Source: an uncultured Verrucomicrobiae bacterium (GTDB lineage: Bacteria > Verrucomicrobiota > Verrucomicrobiia > Limisphaerales > J093). From it: a stretch of 64,000 nucleotides of DNA. Within the stretch, counting starts at the first letter, position 1. Every line of letters begins with the position of its first letter. The DNA lies in assembly GCA_937946835.1 (NCBI GenBank), contig CALFAV010000067.1, positions 1 through 64,000 on the forward strand. The letters are read 5' to 3'. A program made the position numbers and the translations under genes. The notes below the pieces were generated by a model, which did not search any database, was not told the origin of the DNA, and saw nothing but the letters and a program-made list of their open reading frames with translations. Positions 4,580-21,200 of the stretch are shown one piece after another.

Positions 4580-7500
4580 ATGGGCGTGGGAATGACGGTT
4601 GACTTCCGGGGGCGCCCCGGCTTTTTAGCGGGCGTGGATTCCGCATCCGCCCATCGCCGGGGGGGCGCGCTGTTGCTCCTTGCCTTCGCGGGGGCGACCG
4701 GGGCGTTTGAGGCCGCCGCAGACACGCTGATTACCCCGCTCCATCCCCCTGCGGCCGGCCGCGCCGGCTTCACCCGCATGGCGGCGGATCAAACCGGGGT
4801 CGCCTTCACCAACCGGCTCGCTCCGGACCGCAGCCTGACCAACCAGATTTACTTCAACGGCTCCGGCGTGGCCGCGGGTGACGTGGACGGCGACGGCCGT
4901 TGCGACCTGTTTTTCTGCGGCCTCGACTCCCCCAATGCCCTGTACCGCAACCGCGGCGCGTGGCACTTCGAGGACATCGCGGCGCCGGCCGGCGTGGACG
5001 GCCCCGGTCTGGACTGCACCGGCGCGGCCCTGGCCGACCTGGACGGCGACGGGGACCTCGACCTGGTGGTCAACACCATCGGGGCGGGCACCCACGTCTT
5101 TCTCAACGACGGGACGGCGCGGTTCACACGCCGAACCGTGCTCAACCCCGATCGCGCCGGCCATTCGCTGGCGCTGGCCGATGTGGACGGCGACGGCGAC
5201 CTCGACCTGTACGTCGCCAATTACCGCACCACCACGCTCCGGGACATGCCCGGCACCAAGTTCCGCGTGAACGTGGTGGACGGCCGGCCGGTGATCACTC
5301 ACGTCAATGACCGTCCGGTGACCGAACCGGACCTCGAGGGCCGCTACGTCGTGGACGCGCAGGGCCGCGTGACCGAGTTTGGCGAGCCGGACGTGTTGTA
5401 CCTCAACGACGGGACCGGTCAGTTCACGGCCGTCCCCTGGACCGACGGGGCCTTCCTGGACGAAGACGGTCGTCCCCTGGACCGGCCGCCCCGGGATTGG
5501 ACGCTCTCGGCGATGTTTCGCGACTTCAACGGCGACGGTGCGCCGGACCTGTACACGTGCAGCGACTTCAGTCCGCCGGACCGGCTCTGGCTCAACGACG
5601 GCCACGGGCGTTTCCGCCTGGCACCCCGGCTCACCCTGCGGACCACACCCATGTTCTCGATGGGCCTGGACGTGGCCGATGTGAACCGGGACGGGCACGA
5701 CGACCTGTTTGTCAGCGACATGCTCAGCCGCTCCCACCGGTTGCGCATGGTGCAGGTGGGCGATCTGGTGCCGGTGTTCCTCGAGGTCGGCCGGCTGGAC
5801 GACCGGCCGCAGTACCTGCGCAACACGCTTCAGGTCAACCGCGGCGACGGCACCTGGGCCGAACTGGGACGCTTCGCCGGCGTGGCCGCCTCCGAATGGA
5901 CCTGGTGCCCGGTGTTCCTGGACGTGGACCTCGACGGCTATGAGGACCTCCTGGTCACCACCGGCCACGAGCGTGACGCCATGAACGGCGACATCGCCGA
6001 GCAGGTGCGCGCCGCCCGGCGGCGGCAGGACCTGAGCCGGCGCCAAATGCTCGAGTTGGGCCGCCTGTTTCCCCCGCTGGCCACGCCCAACGTCGCCTAC
6101 CGCAACCGGGGCGATCTGACCTTTGAAGATTTCAGCGAGGCCTGGGGCTATGCCGTGCCGGGCGTCTCCCAGGGTCAGGCACTGGCCGATCTGGACGACG
6201 ACGGCGACCTCGACGTGGCGATCAACCAGCTCAACGGCCCGGCCCTGTTGCTCCGCAACGATGCCCCAGCGCCCCGGCTGGCCGTGCGCCTGAAAGGCCG
6301 TGCCCCCAACACCCGCGGCATAGGCGCGCGGATCGTGGTCGAGGGCGGTCCGGTCCGCCAAGGCCAGGAAATGATCGCCGGCGGGCATTACCTGTCTTCG
6401 AGCGAGCCGCTGCGCGTGTTCGCGGCCGGCAGCCCCACCGCCCGGTTGCGGGTGGAGGTGCACTGGCGTTCGGGCCGGCACAGTTTCGTCACCAACGTCC
6501 CCGCCAACTGCTTGGTGGAAGTGGATGAGTCCGGGGCCGGGTCGCCGGGATCGGTTCCCCCACCGCCGTTCGGGCCGCTGTTCGTGGATGTGAGTGAGCG
6601 CCTCAACCATCGCCACACCGAGAACTACTTTGACGACCTCGCCCGCCAACCGCTCCTGCCCCGCAAACTCAGTCAGCTCGGCCCGGGCGTTACCTGGGCC
6701 GACGTCAACGGCGACGGCCCCGATGATCTGATCATTGCCAGCGGCAACGGGGGCACGCTGGCCCTGTACCTGAACAATGGCCGCGGCGACTTCACACTGA
6801 GCCGCACGCCCCCGCTGAACTTTGCGGTCACCCGCGACCAAACCACCGTGCTCGCCTGGCCGCGCGCCCCGGGTGAGGTGGTCCTTCTGGCCGGATCGGC
6901 CAACTACGAGGACGCGCTCGCCATCGGCCCCGTGACCCGGCAGTACGACCTCGCCGCCGGGCGGATGGACGACTCGCTCCCGCCCGCGGCCTGGAGCGCG
7001 GGCGCCCTGGCCCTGGCGGACGTGGACGCGGACGGGGACCTCGACCTGCTCGTGGCCGGCCGTTGCACCGGTGAGCGCTACCCGGAACCCGCTGCCGCCT
7101 GGCTGTTCCGCCGGGAAAACGACCGGTGGCAGAAGGATGAGGCAACGGCGTCTCTGCTGGAGCGCGTTGGACTGGTCACCAGCGCCATGTTTTCCGATTT
7201 GACCGGTGATGGTTGGCCGGACCTGGTGCTGGCAACCGAGTGGGGGCCTTTGCGCCTTTTGCGCAACGAACGCGGCCGCTTCGTGCCCTGGGACCCGCCG
7301 GTACGGGCCGAGGCTTACCCGGGAACCACGCGGGCGCTGAGTGAGCTGACCGGTTGGTGGCAGGGCGTGGCGGCCGGGGATCTCGACGGCGACGGGCGGC
7401 TGGACCTGATTGCGGCCAACTGGGGGAACAACACCTTCCACCAGCCGACGCCGGACCATCCCCTGCGGCTGTACTTCGGCGATTTCGATGCGAACGGCAC

Positions 7501-11094: not shown

Positions 11095-12720
11095 TCAAGG
11101 GGTTGCCGCCGACTCGACAGGCTCGCTGCGCCAGACCCAGTCGCCGAAGGGCGCTTCGCCTTTGTCGCCCAGCCGGACTTCCTTGGTGGGCTGGCCGTCG
11201 TCGTCTTTGCCGTCCAAACCCACCGAGTACAGGACAAACCGGTTCGGGGCCTCGCGGCGATACTTCAGCGCGCCGCCGTTGACCGGGTCCGGCGGCACGC
11301 GGGCCAGGAAACGCGGCGCGAGTTCTTCAAGTCGTTCCGGATAGGCGCCCGTGGCCAGCCGATGCCGCTCCAAGGCGCACGCCACCCGCGCCAGGGTCAC
11401 CGTGGCCTGGCTGACTGCCGCCTTTTCGAGCGACCTTTCCACCGCCGGCAGCAGCATGGCGGCGAAGACCGTGTAGGGCGAACGGGCACCCCAACCTTGG
11501 CGCAACGCCTTGTCTTCAGGCGAAGGCGTGACGCGGACCGCCGGGCCCGCCGGGTCGAGCCGATCCAGGAGCACGGCCTGAAAAGCGCGCGCGATGTTGA
11601 GTTGGTTGCGATAGACGAACGCGCGCGGCCAGTACCGCAGGGTTTTCCGGTAGGGATTTTCCGGCACCCCGGGGCCCTCGTCCGGGTCGAGCGCCGCCCC
11701 CAGCATGGCCAGGCTGAAAGCCCGCTCGCCACGGATGCAACGCTGGAAATCCGCCACGACGTTGAGGCGTTCCAAGCGGGCCTCGATCCGGGCCAGGGCG
11801 GGTTCCGTCCAGCGGTGTTCCGCCAGCCCGGCCCAGAGCGGTTGAATGGCGAGTTCAAGTACGGCGATTTTCACCAGCGCGCCGAGGAGCAACGGCTGAC
11901 TGCCGGCGGCTTCGGTGAGGGCCAGCAAGGTGGCGAAGTCCTCGGCCGCCACTTCCGGGTTGCCCGCCGCCAGTTCGGTCCGGCAGGAGGCCCGGAAGAG
12001 AAGGGTCAGGCTCTTCAGCGTGCTCATCCAGGGCAGCATTTCGCCGGAGTACAGGTCCGTTGGCGTGCGGAGTTGGGCCAATGGCCGCCGGGCGGCCGCG
12101 CGCATCTCGTCCAGGATCGCTTTGTCATGACCCAGCAGAAAGCGCAGGTCTTCCAAGGGTGTTCCGGCCGGCCGGGCCCGCAATGCGGCCAGCGCCGGAT
12201 TGTCCGGCGCGGGGCGGCCCGGCGGTGGTGGGTCGGGAGGTGCCTCGGACAAACCGTAGCGCTGGGCCATCCGTTGATCCACCTGACGCCGGCCCGAAGT
12301 GCCGGGGGTCGCGCGCAGTTGCGCCTGCCAGGTCTCCAGCGGCGTGACCGTGCCTTCGCGCCAATTCCCCGGTGCTTGGAGCCAGCCGGCCCAGTTGAAA
12401 CGGTGTTTCAATTCCTCGCAGGCATTCGTGTCACCCGCCCCGGCGGTTGCCCCGGTCTGGTTGGTGGCGAATCCGAAGCACGCAGCCAGCGCCGGGGTGG
12501 CGAGGAAGTTCTGGTCGTCTGGCACGGGTGGTGGTGCGAACGAGGCCCAATCCAACTTCTCGCCGCGGGCGGCGAGTTCCCGCTTGTACGCCTCCCACGC
12601 GCGTTTGGCACGCCAACCTTCGCAAGTCAGCACCAGTACGGTGAGGGTGACCAGCACGGCCAGCGCGAAGGCGAGGCGCTTCAGCCATTTCCTCCAACGG
12701 GGCCAGCGGGCAGTTTTCAT
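11095..12720 (-). CDS. Single-pass membrane protein of unknown function in a sigma-factor operon
   Basis: 541 residues from the ATG at 12720 (MKTARWPRWRKWLKRLAFAL). A basic N-terminus is followed by one transmembrane helix (about residues 14-31), and the rest is a helical soluble domain. Near the C-terminus it reads RFVLYSVGLDGKDDDGQPTK, an ending I associate with paralogous Verrucomicrobia proteins located beside ECF sigma factors. It starts 1 base after the stop of the putative anti-sigma gene at 12722, which itself overlaps the sigma gene. It is the last gene of that operon. A relic of a second copy lies at 10290-10420. I do not recognise an enzyme motif; the soluble domain may sense or act outside the membrane. 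Confidence 0.7.
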   Translation of the reverse strand: MKTARWPRWRKWLKRLAFALAVLVTLTVLVLTCEGWRAKRAWEAYKRELAARGEKLDWASFAPPPVPDDQNFLATPALAACFGFATNQTGATAGAGDTNACEELKHRFNWAGWLQAPGNWREGTVTPLETWQAQLRATPGTSGRRQVDQRMAQRYGLSEAPPDPPPPGRPAPDNPALAALRARPAGTPLEDLRFLLGHDKAILDEMRAAARRPLAQLRTPTDLYSGEMLPWMSTLKSLTLLFRASCRTELAAGNPEVAAEDFATLLALTEAAGSQPLLLGALVKIAVLELAIQPLWAGLAEHRWTEPALARIEARLERLNVVADFQRCIRGERAFSLAMLGAALDPDEGPGVPENPYRKTLRYWPRAFVYRNQLNIARAFQAVLLDRLDPAGPAVRVTPSPEDKALRQGWGARSPYTVFAAMLLPAVERSLEKAAVSQATVTLARVACALERHRLATGAYPERLEELAPRFLARVPPDPVNGGALKYRREAPNRFVLYSVGLDGKDDDGQPTKEVRLGDKGEAPFGDWVWRSEPVESAATP

Positions 12721-12721
12721 A

Positions 12722-13141
12722 TCAGGCGGCGAGGCGATGAGTTTGACGGAGCAACAACCCTTGGTCGGGTGAACGGCGTGGAGGTGGCGGAGGTGGCGGC
12801 GGCTCGGCCAGCACAGCCATGAATTCAGGGTTGCCAAGCAGATGATTGCAGGCGGCAGCCAATCGGGCCCCGACGCGGGCTTGCGCGATTTCGGCCGCGC
12901 TGGGCGCGCTGGCCAGGTGGAGCGCCAGGATGGCGACCCAGCATGCCGCCAGACCGGCCCAGGCCGCCGGATGCGGCCAGAGCCAGTGTCGAAGTCGAAG
13001 GATGAAGGTCGGAGGACGAGAGGGCTCGCGCCGGGCCGCCGCCTCCCCCGTGGCGGCGCGCAGGATTTGGCCGCGCCACTCCGCGGGGACGGGACGCAGC
13101 GGCTGCCGGCTCAGGTGTTGTTCAAAATCGTCGGTCTTCAT
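12722..13141 (-). CDS. Putative anti-sigma factor (single-pass membrane protein)
   Basis: 139 residues. Its start codon overlaps the stop of the sigma gene by four bases (13138-13141), the usual arrangement for a sigma/anti-sigma pair. The N-terminal 45 residues are acidic/basic and probably cytoplasmic (DDFEQHLSRQPLRPVPAEWR). A hydrophobic segment follows at about 58-78 (AAWAGLAACWVAILALHLAS). The C-terminal part contains a run of eight prolines and would lie outside. The zinc-binding HxxxCxxC motif of ZAS anti-sigmas is absent, so the call rests on position and topology rather than a recognised domain. Confidence 0.6.
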   Translation of the reverse strand: MKTDDFEQHLSRQPLRPVPAEWRGQILRAATGEAAARREPSRPPTFILRLRHWLWPHPAAWAGLAACWVAILALHLASAPSAAEIAQARVGARLAAACNHLLGNPEFMAVLAEPPPPPPPPRRSPDQGLLLRQTHRLAA

Positions 13142-13650
13142 TTGATCGCGTCGTAAAGGGGACGCAGCCGGGCGCGCAGTTTGTCCAGCCCGTAGCGATA
13201 CCGGCTGGCGGCGGTGTTGAGCGGGATGCCCAACGCCGTGCCGATGGCTTCGAACGTCAGGCCCTCCCAGAGCTTCAGGTGAACGACCGCTCGTTGCTCC
13301 GCGGGCAGCTCGGCCAGCGCCGCCTCGAGTTCCGCGCGGAACGCGGCGGCGTCGGGATCGGTCGCGGGCGCAAACAGGCCGGCGGATTCCGCGGCCAGGG
13401 CATCGCTGGCGCGCTGACGGGCGGCGCGGCGGCGGACGAGGTCCACCACGGTGTTGTGGGTCATGCGCAGCAGAAAGGCGCGTTTGTCACGGACCCCGTC
13501 CAAAAGCTCGGGTCGGGCCGCCAGCCGGGTGAACACCTGCTGGAGCGCGTCGTGGGTGTCGTCTTCGCGGCGGGTGAGGTTCAGCGCAAAGCCGAACAGC
13601 GCCGCGGCGTGCGCGTCGTACAGGCGCTCCAGATCGGGTCGGCCGGTCAT
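13138..13650 (-). CDS. ECF RNA polymerase sigma factor
   Basis: 170 residues, the usual size for an extracytoplasmic-function sigma-70 protein. Region 2 is LYDAHAAALFGFALNLTRRE ... DALQQVFTRL with KRAFLLRMTHNTVVDLVRRR. Region 4 is LPAEQRAVVHLKLWEGLTFE ... IGTALGIPLNTAASRYRYGL, the helix-turn-helix that reads the -35 element. Regions 1 and 3 are missing, as expected. It is the first gene of a three-gene operon with a probable anti-sigma and a membrane protein. Such systems answer envelope signals; the signal here is unknown. Promoter-like sequence could not be confirmed in the 199-base gap upstream. Confidence 0.92.
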   Translation of the reverse strand: MTGRPDLERLYDAHAAALFGFALNLTRREDDTHDALQQVFTRLAARPELLDGVRDKRAFLLRMTHNTVVDLVRRRAARQRASDALAAESAGLFAPATDPDAAAFRAELEAALAELPAEQRAVVHLKLWEGLTFEAIGTALGIPLNTAASRYRYGLDKLRARLRPLYDAIK

Positions 13651-13849: not shown

Positions 13850-14247
13850 ATGAGCATCCGCACCTTCTCCCCGCGACTGCAGGTGGCGCTCGGGCTGGGC
13901 TTGGCGCTGGCGGCGCCGCGGCCCGCCCGGGGTGTCGAGCTGGGCATCGCCGGCCCGACCTTCACGCTCGATGGACGGCCGGCCTTTCTGCTGGGCGTCA
14001 GCTACTACGGTGCGCTCGGCGCGCCCGAGGATTTCATCCGCCGCGACCTCGAGGACCTGCAGCGGCACGGCTTCCACTGGCTTCGCGTCTGGGCCACGTG
14101 GGCCGCGTTCGGCAACGATGTCTCGGCGGTGGACGCCGAGGGCCGCGCGCGCGAGCCGTACCTGGCCAAGCTGGTCTGGCTGGTGGCCGAGTGCAACCGG
14201 CGCGGCCTGGTGGTGGACGTGACCCTGTCGCGGATTGGCAGTCCGCG
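13850..14247 (+). pseudogene. Glycoside-hydrolase-like gene truncated at a palindromic repeat
   Basis: The ATG at 13850 starts a protein with a signal peptide (VALGLGLALAAPRPARG), then GPTFTLDGRPAFLLGVSYYG and LQRHGFHWLRVWATWAAFG. This is the N-terminal third of a (beta/alpha)8 cellulase-type hydrolase. After about 126 residues (LVVDVTLSRIG) the similarity ends inside the hairpin CGCGGATTGGCAGTCCGCG at 14229-14247. The frame stays open to 14410, but those 54 codons translate hairpin repeats and not enzyme. Catalytic glutamates and most of the barrel are missing. The gene is therefore almost certainly dead. What remains cannot say which GH family or substrate it had. Confidence 0.7.
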
Positions 14248-14445
14248 TCGGGACCACTTCGGTCTTGGTGTGTGGCATGGGCGTCCTGCATGCAGCCCGG
14301 GCAGGCTCGAAGCCGTCACCGCATCCCGCCCGGGCTGGAAGCCCGCGATACAGCAGACTGGAAGTCTGCGCTACGCCCGCCGCCGGGCGGGACGCCCGGC
14401 TCTACGGTAAGCGAGCCGCCTGCCGCTATTGTAGCGGGCCACGTC
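14229..14445. repeat. Modular hairpin array A
   Basis: Four short hairpins: CGCGGATTGGCAGTCCGCG (14229-14247), CGGGCTGGAAGCCCG (14331-14345), GCAGACTGGAAGTCTGC (14353-14369) and GCCGGGCGGGACGCCCGGC (14382-14400). Spacers such as CGATACA, GCTACG and TCTACGG join the last three. Stems differ but loops are of two kinds (TGGNA or GGGAC). The first hairpin is the break point of the truncated hydrolase gene. Confidence 0.75.
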
Positions 14446-14535: not shown

Positions 14536-14865
14536 ATGGCCCTCAAGATCAATCGGCGCCGCCGCTGGTTTGGCCTGCTGTACCTGATCCTCGCCGGAGG
14601 CCTGTTGATCTGGGGCCTGACCTGGTTGCGACCGGGGCTGCACGGCATCGGGTTTGTGATCTATTGGCTGGCCTGCCTGGGCTGCGCGCTGGCCGCGCTG
14701 ATCATTGCCTGGCTGGATTGGCGGAGTGTGCGCCGGCAGATCCGGGCCGAGCAACGGGAACTGCTGGAACACGCGCTGGATAAAATCCGGCCGCCCCAGC
14801 CGCCGCCGCCCCAGCCGCCGCCGCCCGCCGCGCCGCCCGAGTCCCCGACCCGTTCCCCGAAATGA
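14536..14865 (+). CDS. Small two-helix membrane protein upstream of tatD
   Basis: 109 residues from the ATG at 14536. A basic N-terminus (KINRRRRW) leads to two transmembrane helices (about 13-33 and 41-61), then a charged helix (RSVRRQIRAEQRELLEHALD) and a proline-rich tail (PPQPPPPQPPPPAAPPE). It resembles small inner-membrane proteins often found next to tatD or holB in this phylum, but I do not recognise a named family. Its stop overlaps the tatD start (ATGA at 14862-14865), so the two are translationally coupled. Proline-rich tails often mediate protein contact. Confidence 0.65.
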   Translation: MALKINRRRRWFGLLYLILAGGLLIWGLTWLRPGLHGIGFVIYWLACLGCALAALIIAWLDWRSVRRQIRAEQRELLEHALDKIRPPQPPPPQPPPPAAPPESPTRSPK

Positions 14866-15659
14866 CCGCCTTTTACGACACCCACGCGCATCTGGATCAC
14901 CGGCAGTTTGCCGCCGACCTGCCGCAAGTGCTGGAACGCGCCGCAGCAGCCGGTGTCCGGCGCCTCATTACGGTGGGCACCAATCAGGAGAGCAGCCGCC
15001 GGGCCGTGGCCCTGGCGGAGGCGCACCCGGAGATTTACGCCGTGGTGGGCTGGCATCCCGGCGAGGCGCTGGAGGCGCCGGCCGATCTGCGCCCCTGGCT
15101 GCGCGCGGCGGCGCGCCATCCCCGGGTCGTGGCCCTGGGCGAAACCGGCCTGGATTACTACCGGCTGCCGCCGGGCGGCGCGGCCGTGGCCGCGGCGTAC
15201 AAGGCGCGCCAGGCCGAGTTGTTTCGGCAACACCTCGAGGTGGCGGCCGAAACGGGGTTGAACTGCGTGATTCACCAGCGCGCCGCCCTCGAGGACACGC
15301 TGCGGGTGTTCGCGCCGTTTGCCGACCGGGTGCGCGGGCAGTTCCACTGCTTTTCCGAAGGGCCGGAGGCGCTGGCGCGGATTCTGGCGCTGGGCTCGCT
15401 GGTGAGTTTCACCGGCATCCTCACCTTCAAAAACGGGGAGCCGGTCCGCGCCGCGCTGGCCGCCACGCCGCGCGACCGGTTCATGCTCGAAACCGACTGC
15501 CCGTACCTCGCGCCCCAGCCCTTCCGCGGGCAGCGGTGCGAGCCGGCCCACGTGCGGGAGACCGCCGCCGTGGCGGCGGTGGTGACCGGGCTGAGCCTGG
15601 AGGAACTGAGCGCGGCGACCTGCGCCACCGCCCATCGGTTTTTCCCCAGGCTGGGTTGA
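14862..15659 (+). CDS. tatD: TatD-family metal-dependent DNase/hydrolase
   Basis: 265 residues, normal length. The family motifs of this amidohydrolase-type TIM barrel are all present: YDTHAHLDHRQF (first metal pair), VGWHPGEA, VALGETGLDYYR (bridging glutamate), CVIHQRAALED, FHCFSEG, and the final LETDCPYLAPQPFRGQRCEP with the metal-binding aspartate. TatD proteins are cytoplasmic 3'-5' exonucleases or DNases that need divalent metal. The start is fixed by the 4-base overlap with the upstream membrane-protein gene. Confidence 0.93.
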   Translation: MTAFYDTHAHLDHRQFAADLPQVLERAAAAGVRRLITVGTNQESSRRAVALAEAHPEIYAVVGWHPGEALEAPADLRPWLRAAARHPRVVALGETGLDYYRLPPGGAAVAAAYKARQAELFRQHLEVAAETGLNCVIHQRAALEDTLRVFAPFADRVRGQFHCFSEGPEALARILALGSLVSFTGILTFKNGEPVRAALAATPRDRFMLETDCPYLAPQPFRGQRCEPAHVRETAAVAAVVTGLSLEELSAATCATAHRFFPRLG

Positions 15660-16347
15660 TGGCGCGCGCGGGTTTGCCCCGGCCGCGCGGGCCGGGCCTC
15701 CGTCCCGGCGGGAAGTGGGTGTAGCGTGGATGGGGCAATCTGCCGTACCGCCGGCTGGCCGCCAACGGGCGCGGGTGCCGACTTCCAGTCCGCCCGGACC
15801 GCGACGCAGCGCGGCCCTACCAGGGGCCAATCAAGAGTAGGGCGCCGCGGCGTTGGCGCCGCTAACCCGGGCGGCAAGCTGCCGCCCTCTACGGCAACCG
15901 GGACGGTTGCCGCTACGCCGGAGCGCCGGCTTCCAGCCGGCGAGCGGGGGGGTGGACTTCCGGCCCGCTTGGGCCGCGCCGCAGCGCGGCCCTACCAAGA
16001 ACTCAGTCGGGCCCTCCTCCCGGTAGGGCGCCGGTGATCCGGGTGGCAGGATGCTGCCCACCGTGGCAGCCGGGGCGGCTGCCGCCACAACAAAGCGGAC
16101 CCCGGCTTTGAGGCGGGTGCAAATACTGAAATGCGCCCGCGCAAAGGGGCGGGGCCGAAATTGACTCGCCTTTTCCCGAAGCGTTACCCAAGCTGTCAGG
16201 CATGGCCCTGTACCAAACTGCACCTTCGGAAGGTCCGCGCCCGGCCGGCGCGTTGTTGGAGACAGGTCGGCACAGGACCTTCCGGCGACCGGGCAATTTG
16301 GTGTGCGGGGATCAACCTGAATCGGGAACCTTTCTCCCATCCATCCC
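15660..16347. repeat. 688-base gap filled with hairpin array B and two GGTAGGG elements
   Basis: No gene is visible. Hairpins include GGGCGGCAAGCTGCCGCCC (15869-15887), GGCAACCGGGACGGTTGCC (15893-15911) and GCCGGCTTCCAGCCGGC (15925-15941). Two inverted copies of a 26-base element (GGTAGGGCCGCGCTGCG followed by a GC arm) are at 15796-15821 and 15971-15996. Partial copies begin TAGGGCGCCG near 15838 and 16023. From about 16100 the repeats stop, and the rest is upstream sequence of the beta-barrel gene. Confidence 0.8.
16227..16284 (+). promoter_or_regulatory. Long inverted repeat upstream of the beta-barrel gene
   Basis: CGGAAGGTCC (16227-16236) pairs perfectly with GGACCTTCCG (16275-16284) around a 38-base loop that itself contains the palindrome CCGGCCGG. 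It ends 63 bases before the ATG at 16348. It could be a 5' leader structure, an operator or an attenuator. No downstream T tract argues against a plain terminator. Confidence 0.4.
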
Positions 16348-20727: not shown

Positions 20728-21200
20728 GCGTGCCGGGCAGCCTGAGCAAGCGGTTCGGGCTGTCAAGGCAGGGGCCGCAGAGTTCGCCCCGCGGCGGTAA
20801 GACAAACACCAAGGACACCAAGACCACGAAGACCCTCTCGCAAGCGGTGCTTCAACCACCTCCGCAGGGATTAGCAATCAGCCCGCCGGGCGGAAGCGTT
20901 TGAGACCGCAGCCCCGTTGGGAAATCGCTCCGCTCCTTCGTTCTCTTGGTGGGCTGGGTGTTCTTGGTGGTTCCAATTGGGGTGCTCGGTCCGCCGGCCG
21001 GAAGCTGCCCAGGGTTGCGCCGCCGCCGCAGCGGTGCCCTGTCAGTCCCGGTGACCAATTCCGGTAGGGCCGCGCTGCGGCGTGGCCAAAGGTGGGGTAC
21101 GCCAGTCTGCTGGCGCTTTCCATTGGGGACCGATTAACGGGTTGCCCCAGGTGTGACACCGTTCGGTTGACCGCCGGAGCCGGCGTTTCACAATCGCCGC
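20728..21200. other. 473-base gap with micro-repeats and repeat array C
   Basis: No gene is visible. It contains an AC-rich stretch with CACCAAGGACACC (20809-20821) and an inverted near-copy read on the minus strand as CACCAAGAACACC near 20957-20969. A 25-base GGTAGGGCCGCGCTGCG element is at 21063-21087, and the hairpin CGCCAGTCTGCTGGCG at 21100-21115. Promoters for both flanking divergent genes should lie here, but none is clear. Confidence 0.7.

What the first reader, a model, noticed from the sequence alone, without database searches (positions are those of the whole stretch)
13850..14410. Hydrolase gene broken exactly at a hairpin unit
Seen: the GH-like frame is normal to LVVDVTLSR and then runs into CGCGGATTGGCAGTCCGCG (14229-14247), the same loop class as the arrays, followed by three more units at 14331-14400. 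The frame stays open, but the protein is repeat translation. This ties the repeats to a gene-breaking event: insertion with deletion, or recombination between repeats.
Basis: partly seen in the sequence, partly recalled or inferred. Interest (0 to 1): 0.65.

Follow-up and report, generated by a model that had tools for sequence, protein, structure and literature searches.

The report
Sugar-enzyme gene cut at REP repeats
A gene for a sugar-cleaving enzyme has lost its second half exactly where a cluster of short mobile hairpin repeats (GTAG-type REP elements) begins; this is a clear new example of a known kind of genome damage at such repeats.

Summary
The frame at 13850-14230 is the first ~127 codons of a GH5-like hydrolase. 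Thirteen held orthologues run about 200 residues further. In the window, conserved sequence stops at VVDVTLSR, and a repeat array starts at the same bases (14228 on). The missing half is absent from this assembly (89% complete), while the same query finds it in four relatives. The repeats are GTAG-tagged REP elements: tens of sites in this genome, none in three sister species of the genus, and a REP-associated tyrosine transposase present. Two other genes in this genome, an RND pump and a kinase, carry 133-134 bp GTAG...CTAC arrays as insertions, and their homologues have empty sites; the pump frame is intact. The hydrolase differs: no GTAG at the junction, a 6-base overlap TCGCGG between gene and repeat, and no gene after the array. 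Best reading: a deletion or rearrangement with one end in coding sequence and the other in a REP array, joined at microhomology. 'Recombination between repeats' alone does not fit, because the gene side is not a repeat. Main rival: an in-gene array whose right flank was misassembled; contig ends cluster at these arrays. REPs in genes and microhomology junctions at REPs are both published.

The parts
13850..14230 (+). 5' fragment (127 codons with signal peptide) of a GH5-like (clan GH-A-like) hydrolase; lacks the half with NER and QEP motifs
   Evidence: orthologue search and alignment; codon score; fold of intact homologue
14228..14233 (+). junction: TCGCGG fits both the conserved Ser/Thr-Arg codons of the hydrolase and the first bases of the repeat unit (6-base microhomology)
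14229..14247 (+). REP hairpin unit 1 (8-bp arms, GGC loop), at the break
14331..14345 (+). REP hairpin unit 2 (GGA loop)
14353..14374 (+). REP hairpin unit 3, followed by GCTAC, i.e. GTAGC + palindrome on the minus strand (GTAG-tagged REP)
14379..14402 (+). REP-like hairpin unit 4 (GGA loop), followed by CTAC
14229..14437 (+). whole REP array; pieces recur at about 50 places in the genome
14536..14865 (+). small membrane protein gene, intact, first gene to the right of the array; next to TatD in G002 and G005 as well
14862..15659 (+). TatD family DNase gene, intact; next to citrate synthase in four relatives but not here
15663..16110 (.). second REP array, on the other side of the membrane protein-TatD pair
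13138..13650 (-). ECF sigma factor gene, divergent neighbour of the hydrolase fragment; its block (with 12722-13141 and 11095-12837, minus strand) is conserved in relatives without the hydrolase beside it

Best explanation
A secreted GH5-like hydrolase gene was cut by a deletion or larger rearrangement. Its left end fell in ordinary coding sequence after codon ~127 (variable loop behind strand 3 of the barrel). Its right end fell inside a GTAG-type REP array that now lies about 100 bp before the membrane protein-TatD pair. The ends met at the bases TCGCGG, present on both sides. Hairpins in the array probably stalled or broke a replication fork, and repair or template switching used the short match. 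The remaining 127 codons plus repeat translation cannot make an active enzyme. Shown: truncation, coincidence with the array, the overlap, absence of the 3' half from the assembly, absence of arrays at sister loci. Inferred: ancestral DNA at the site, the order of events, fork stalling as cause.
For: 13 orthologues intact past the break; two further intact homologues. 3' half missing here but found by the same query in G002, G004, G005, G013. Unit consensus starts TCGC in all 17 copies found with that register, while TCG CGG also encodes the conserved [ST]-R; a random join gives 6 or more matching bases with P about 0.003. No GTAG at the junction, unlike the two in-gene insertions. Hydrolase and TatD are not neighbours in any held relative, so distant sequences were joined. 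The fragment's branch length equals that of intact sisters (0.152 vs 0.158) and its codon usage is intact, so the break looks recent. Precedent: in E. coli 22 of 90 sequenced rearrangement junctions lie in REP sequences, 14 of them with only 5-20 bp homology (PMC3161906).
Against: The assembly is a draft of 88 contigs and its contig ends cluster at REP arrays (10 of 47 clusters within 600 bp of an end, 1.0 expected), so the right-hand link is not secure. The microhomology rests on inferred ancestral codons. A single locus cannot give the order of events.
Confidence: 0.55

Rival explanations
1. Assembly error on the right side: the hydrolase carries an in-gene REP array, like the RND pump and the kinase, and its 3' half still follows in the living cell. 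The assembler left the array through a repeated stretch into the wrong flank.
For: Contig ends are about ten-fold enriched at REP arrays; the array shares an exact 34-bp stretch with other arrays; two other genes of this genome hold in-gene arrays and continue after them; completeness is 89%.
Against: The 3' half is on no contig of the assembly. The gene-array junction shares at most 15 bp with other held stretches of the genome, so the gene-to-array join itself is not a repeat-driven misjoin. The GTAG terminus of real in-gene insertions is missing. The membrane protein keeps its own ~100-bp leader.
Confidence: 0.22
2. Two steps: first a REP array was inserted into the hydrolase gene, then homologous recombination with another REP array before the membrane protein-TatD pair removed the 3' half and left one hybrid array.
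For: In-gene REP arrays exist in this genome; both sides of the membrane protein-TatD pair are REP arrays and its usual neighbour citrate synthase is elsewhere.
Against: No GTAG end at the gene side; no reciprocal product found; the relocated citrate synthase has no array near it.
Confidence: 0.15
3. Direct RAYT-driven transposition of a REP dimer into the gene, with loss of the rest as part of the same event.
For: A REP-associated tyrosine transposase is encoded (NF047646, 90 bits, cut-off 80) with REP arrays about 70-370 bp upstream of it.
Against: No GTAG boundary; the two real insertions removed little or nothing around them.
Confidence: 0.04
4. The gene is naturally short and the array is an unrelated old neighbour.
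For: The frame is open with a start and a stop.
Against: All 13 orthologues are about 200 residues longer, with conserved motifs; sister loci hold no arrays.
Confidence: 0.01

Closest known systems
GTAG-tagged REP elements / BIMEs with RAYT transposases (Di Nocera et al. 2013, PMC3733652; Opitutus terrae named as a rich Verrucomicrobia host)
   Same: 15-21 bp palindromes, GTAG tag, head-to-head dimers, clusters mostly between genes, RAYT gene with adjacent REPs, patchy species distribution
   Different: loop and stem families not matched one by one to their 24 families; here one array sits at the broken end of a gene
Intragenic REPs / Rickettsia RPEs (PMC3733652)
   Same: arrays inside open frames, encoding tens of residues, in loops (RND pump, kinase in this genome)
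   Different: the hydrolase frame does not resume after the array
Microhomology rearrangement junctions at REP clusters in E. coli (PMC3161906)
   Same: junction in a REP hairpin stem with a few bases of shared sequence
   Different: there observed in selected laboratory isolates; here a single natural, sequence-inferred case
GH5 mannanase/mannosidase-like hydrolases (PDB 1rh9, 5msy, 1uuq)
   Same: predicted (beta/alpha)8-type fold of the intact homologue, best Foldseek hits are GH5 and related families
   Different: 15% identity; Pfam GH5 score 17.4 is below the cut-off of 23.5; the family is uncharacterised

Membership tests
GTAG REP elements | short palindrome with a stem of about 6-9 bp | tested here: met
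   units with 6-8 bp arms
GTAG REP elements | GTAG motif at one end | tested here: met
   palindrome followed by GCTAC (GTAGC on the other strand) at 14353-14374 and at 30 genome sites including one-mismatch ones, control 0; not present at unit 1
GTAG REP elements | many copies, mostly between genes | tested here: met
   52 BLAST matches; most of the 48 clusters in 512 kb lie between genes by codon score, with a few intragenic or chance hits
GTAG REP elements | RAYT transposase in the genome, near REPs | tested here: met
   L079:491-1165 minus, NF047646 over cut-off; array hits at C27:29237-29530
GTAG REP elements | assignment to one of the 24 published families | not tested
   consensus figure not held as text
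RAYT-mobilised insertion at this gene | GTAG...CTAC ends at the junctions | tested here: not met
   present in the pump and kinase inserts, absent at 14228
RAYT-mobilised insertion at this gene | gene resumes after the insert | tested here: not met
   no 3' half here or elsewhere in the assembly
Microhomology deletion | few shared bases at the junction | tested here: inconclusive
   TCGCGG, 6 bases, P about 0.003 for a random join, but the gene side is inferred from orthologue residues
GH5 / clan GH-A | fold of the intact homologue | tested here: met
   Foldseek E 1e-8 to GH5 enzymes, model pLDDT 63
GH5 / clan GH-A | family profile above cut-off | tested here: not met
   PF00150 17.4 bits, cut-off 23.5

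The most novel reading that the evidence does not exclude
In this lineage REP arrays act as repeated break and deletion points that cut genes and help shrink the genome (3.5 Mb assembled, against 6-8 Mb in three species of the same genus), with some arrays kept inside working proteins.
Probability: 0.12. Interest if true: 0.5.

Novelty: new member of a known kind. Interest (0 to 1): 0.3.

Why it matters
It gives a natural, sequence-level case of a REP hairpin array at a gene-breaking junction outside the Proteobacteria, next to two in-gene REP insertions in the same genome. Together they separate two outcomes, insertion with the gene kept (GTAG-bounded) and a break with the gene lost (microhomology, no GTAG). 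That contrast could be tested across the many REP-rich genomes of this order.

Tried and rejected
Naturally short gene: rejected by the alignment. Open frame through the repeats as a sign of selection: rejected, 49% of array stretches are open. Old array next to the gene: rejected, no arrays at ten sister loci. Missing half moved elsewhere in the genome: not found. That scan found no second gene ending abruptly at an array, but two in-gene arrays. These stretches were picked around REP hits, so they are not a random sample. A terminator role for the array was not supported (no terminator-like site). A search for the kinase empty site in three relatives gave nothing; a PDB homologue served instead.

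Full report
What is there. The window is bases 1-64000 of contig C67 (72,327 bp) of a draft genome of 88 contigs, 3.46 Mb, 89% complete. The frame 13850-14410 begins with a signal peptide and a hydrolase-like domain. It is coding by codon score up to 14230 (+0.45 per codon) and not after it (-0.12). The following 14229-14437 is an array of four hairpin units.

The gene is broken. In a search of the own genome and 57 relatives, 14 relatives have a match. Thirteen are clear orthologues (54-72% identity); the fourteenth, L017, is distant. All thirteen run about 200 residues beyond VVDVTLSR, with strongly conserved blocks. Two homologues from another collection agree. The 3' half gives no hit in this genome, while the same chimeric query finds it in G002, G004, G005 and G013 and finds its other parts here. 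The predicted fold of an intact homologue (pLDDT 63, alternating strands and helices) matches GH5 and related hydrolases. The fragment keeps strands 1-3 and loses the NER and QEP motifs, which in clan GH-A enzymes would carry both catalytic glutamates (inference from established knowledge of that clan). The fragment has no excess divergence, so the break looks recent.

The repeats are known elements. Units have the form GCAGACTGGAAGTCTGC-GCTAC, i.e. GTAGC plus a palindrome on the other strand. The 19-mer GACTGGAAGTCNGCGNTAC has 14 exact sites here, or 30 with one mismatch, and 0 for the reversed control. Pieces of the array match 52 places. The three congeners have no exact site, while some other genera of the order have them, so the distribution is patchy. 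A tyrosine transposase passes the NCBIfam cut-off for REP-associated transposases, and arrays lie just upstream of it. GTAG REPs with RAYTs, including many inside genes of the verrucomicrobium Opitutus terrae, are described in PMC3733652.

Two other arrays lie inside genes. On C54 an RND efflux pump of 1111 residues has a 133-bp GTAG...CTAC array, and the pump sequence goes on in frame. MdtB and a Paraburkholderia homologue lack the segment. On C37 a Ser/Thr kinase has a 134-bp GTAG...CTAC array, and PDB 9eed has only two residues there; the kinase frame shifts again further on. These show what an insertion looks like in this genome: GTAG/CTAC ends, both gene halves kept.

The hydrolase junction is different. 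There is no GTAG. The bases TCGCGG are both the start of the repeat unit (TCGC in all 17 copies found with that register) and the expected codons for the conserved [ST]-R. A random join would give 6 or more such bases with P about 0.003. No hydrolase sequence follows. Instead, about 100 bp of leader and the membrane protein-TatD pair follow. That pair is flanked by a second array at 15663-16110 and has lost its usual neighbour citrate synthase, which lies on C11 with no array nearby. In no held relative is the hydrolase next to TatD or next to the sigma factor block.

Interpretation. The simplest account is one deletion or rearrangement with one end in coding sequence and the other in a REP array, joined at microhomology. 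This is as reported for E. coli, where 22 of 90 novel junctions were in REPs and 14 of those had only 5-20 bp of homology (PMC3161906). Recombination between two REPs alone does not explain a junction whose left side is not a REP.

Main doubt. Ten of 47 array clusters lie within 600 bp of a contig end, against 1.0 expected, so the assembler struggled at arrays. The array has an exact 34-bp match elsewhere, so its right flank could be wrong. The gene-array join itself shares at most 15 bp with other held sequence and is unlikely to be a repeat-driven misjoin. If the right flank is wrong, the hydrolase would be a third in-gene array, its 3' half lying in the missing part of the genome.

Verdict. 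The case is new but of a known kind.

Noticed in passing
L082:9029-12364 (G000:C54, array at L082 10544-10676): RND efflux pump gene with a 133-bp REP array in frame in a loop; the full frame is open and homologues lack the segment.
   Followed up: yes
L087:4460-5800 (G000:C37, array at 4950-5083): Ser/Thr kinase gene with a 134-bp REP array, a frame change near 5254 and a further REP-like unit near 5614; probably decaying or a sequencing error.
   Followed up: partly
G000 contig ends (C9, C25, C28, C48, C49, C54, C55, C58, C66): Contig ends of this draft genome cluster at REP arrays (10 of 47 clusters within 600 bp, 1.0 expected), a warning for any rearrangement inferred at an array.
   Followed up: yes
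window 15663-16110, with minor stretches near 21063, 42358, 46315, 50421 and 57049: Further REP-array sequence; the largest stretch lies between TatD and the next gene, where relatives have citrate synthase.
   Followed up: partly
G000 compared with G001, G002, G003: The genome is 3.5 Mb against 6.1-8.2 Mb in three species of the same genus, and only it holds these REPs.
   Followed up: no
L079:491-1165 minus strand (G000:C27): REP-associated tyrosine transposase gene with REP arrays just upstream (C27:29237-29530).
   Followed up: partly
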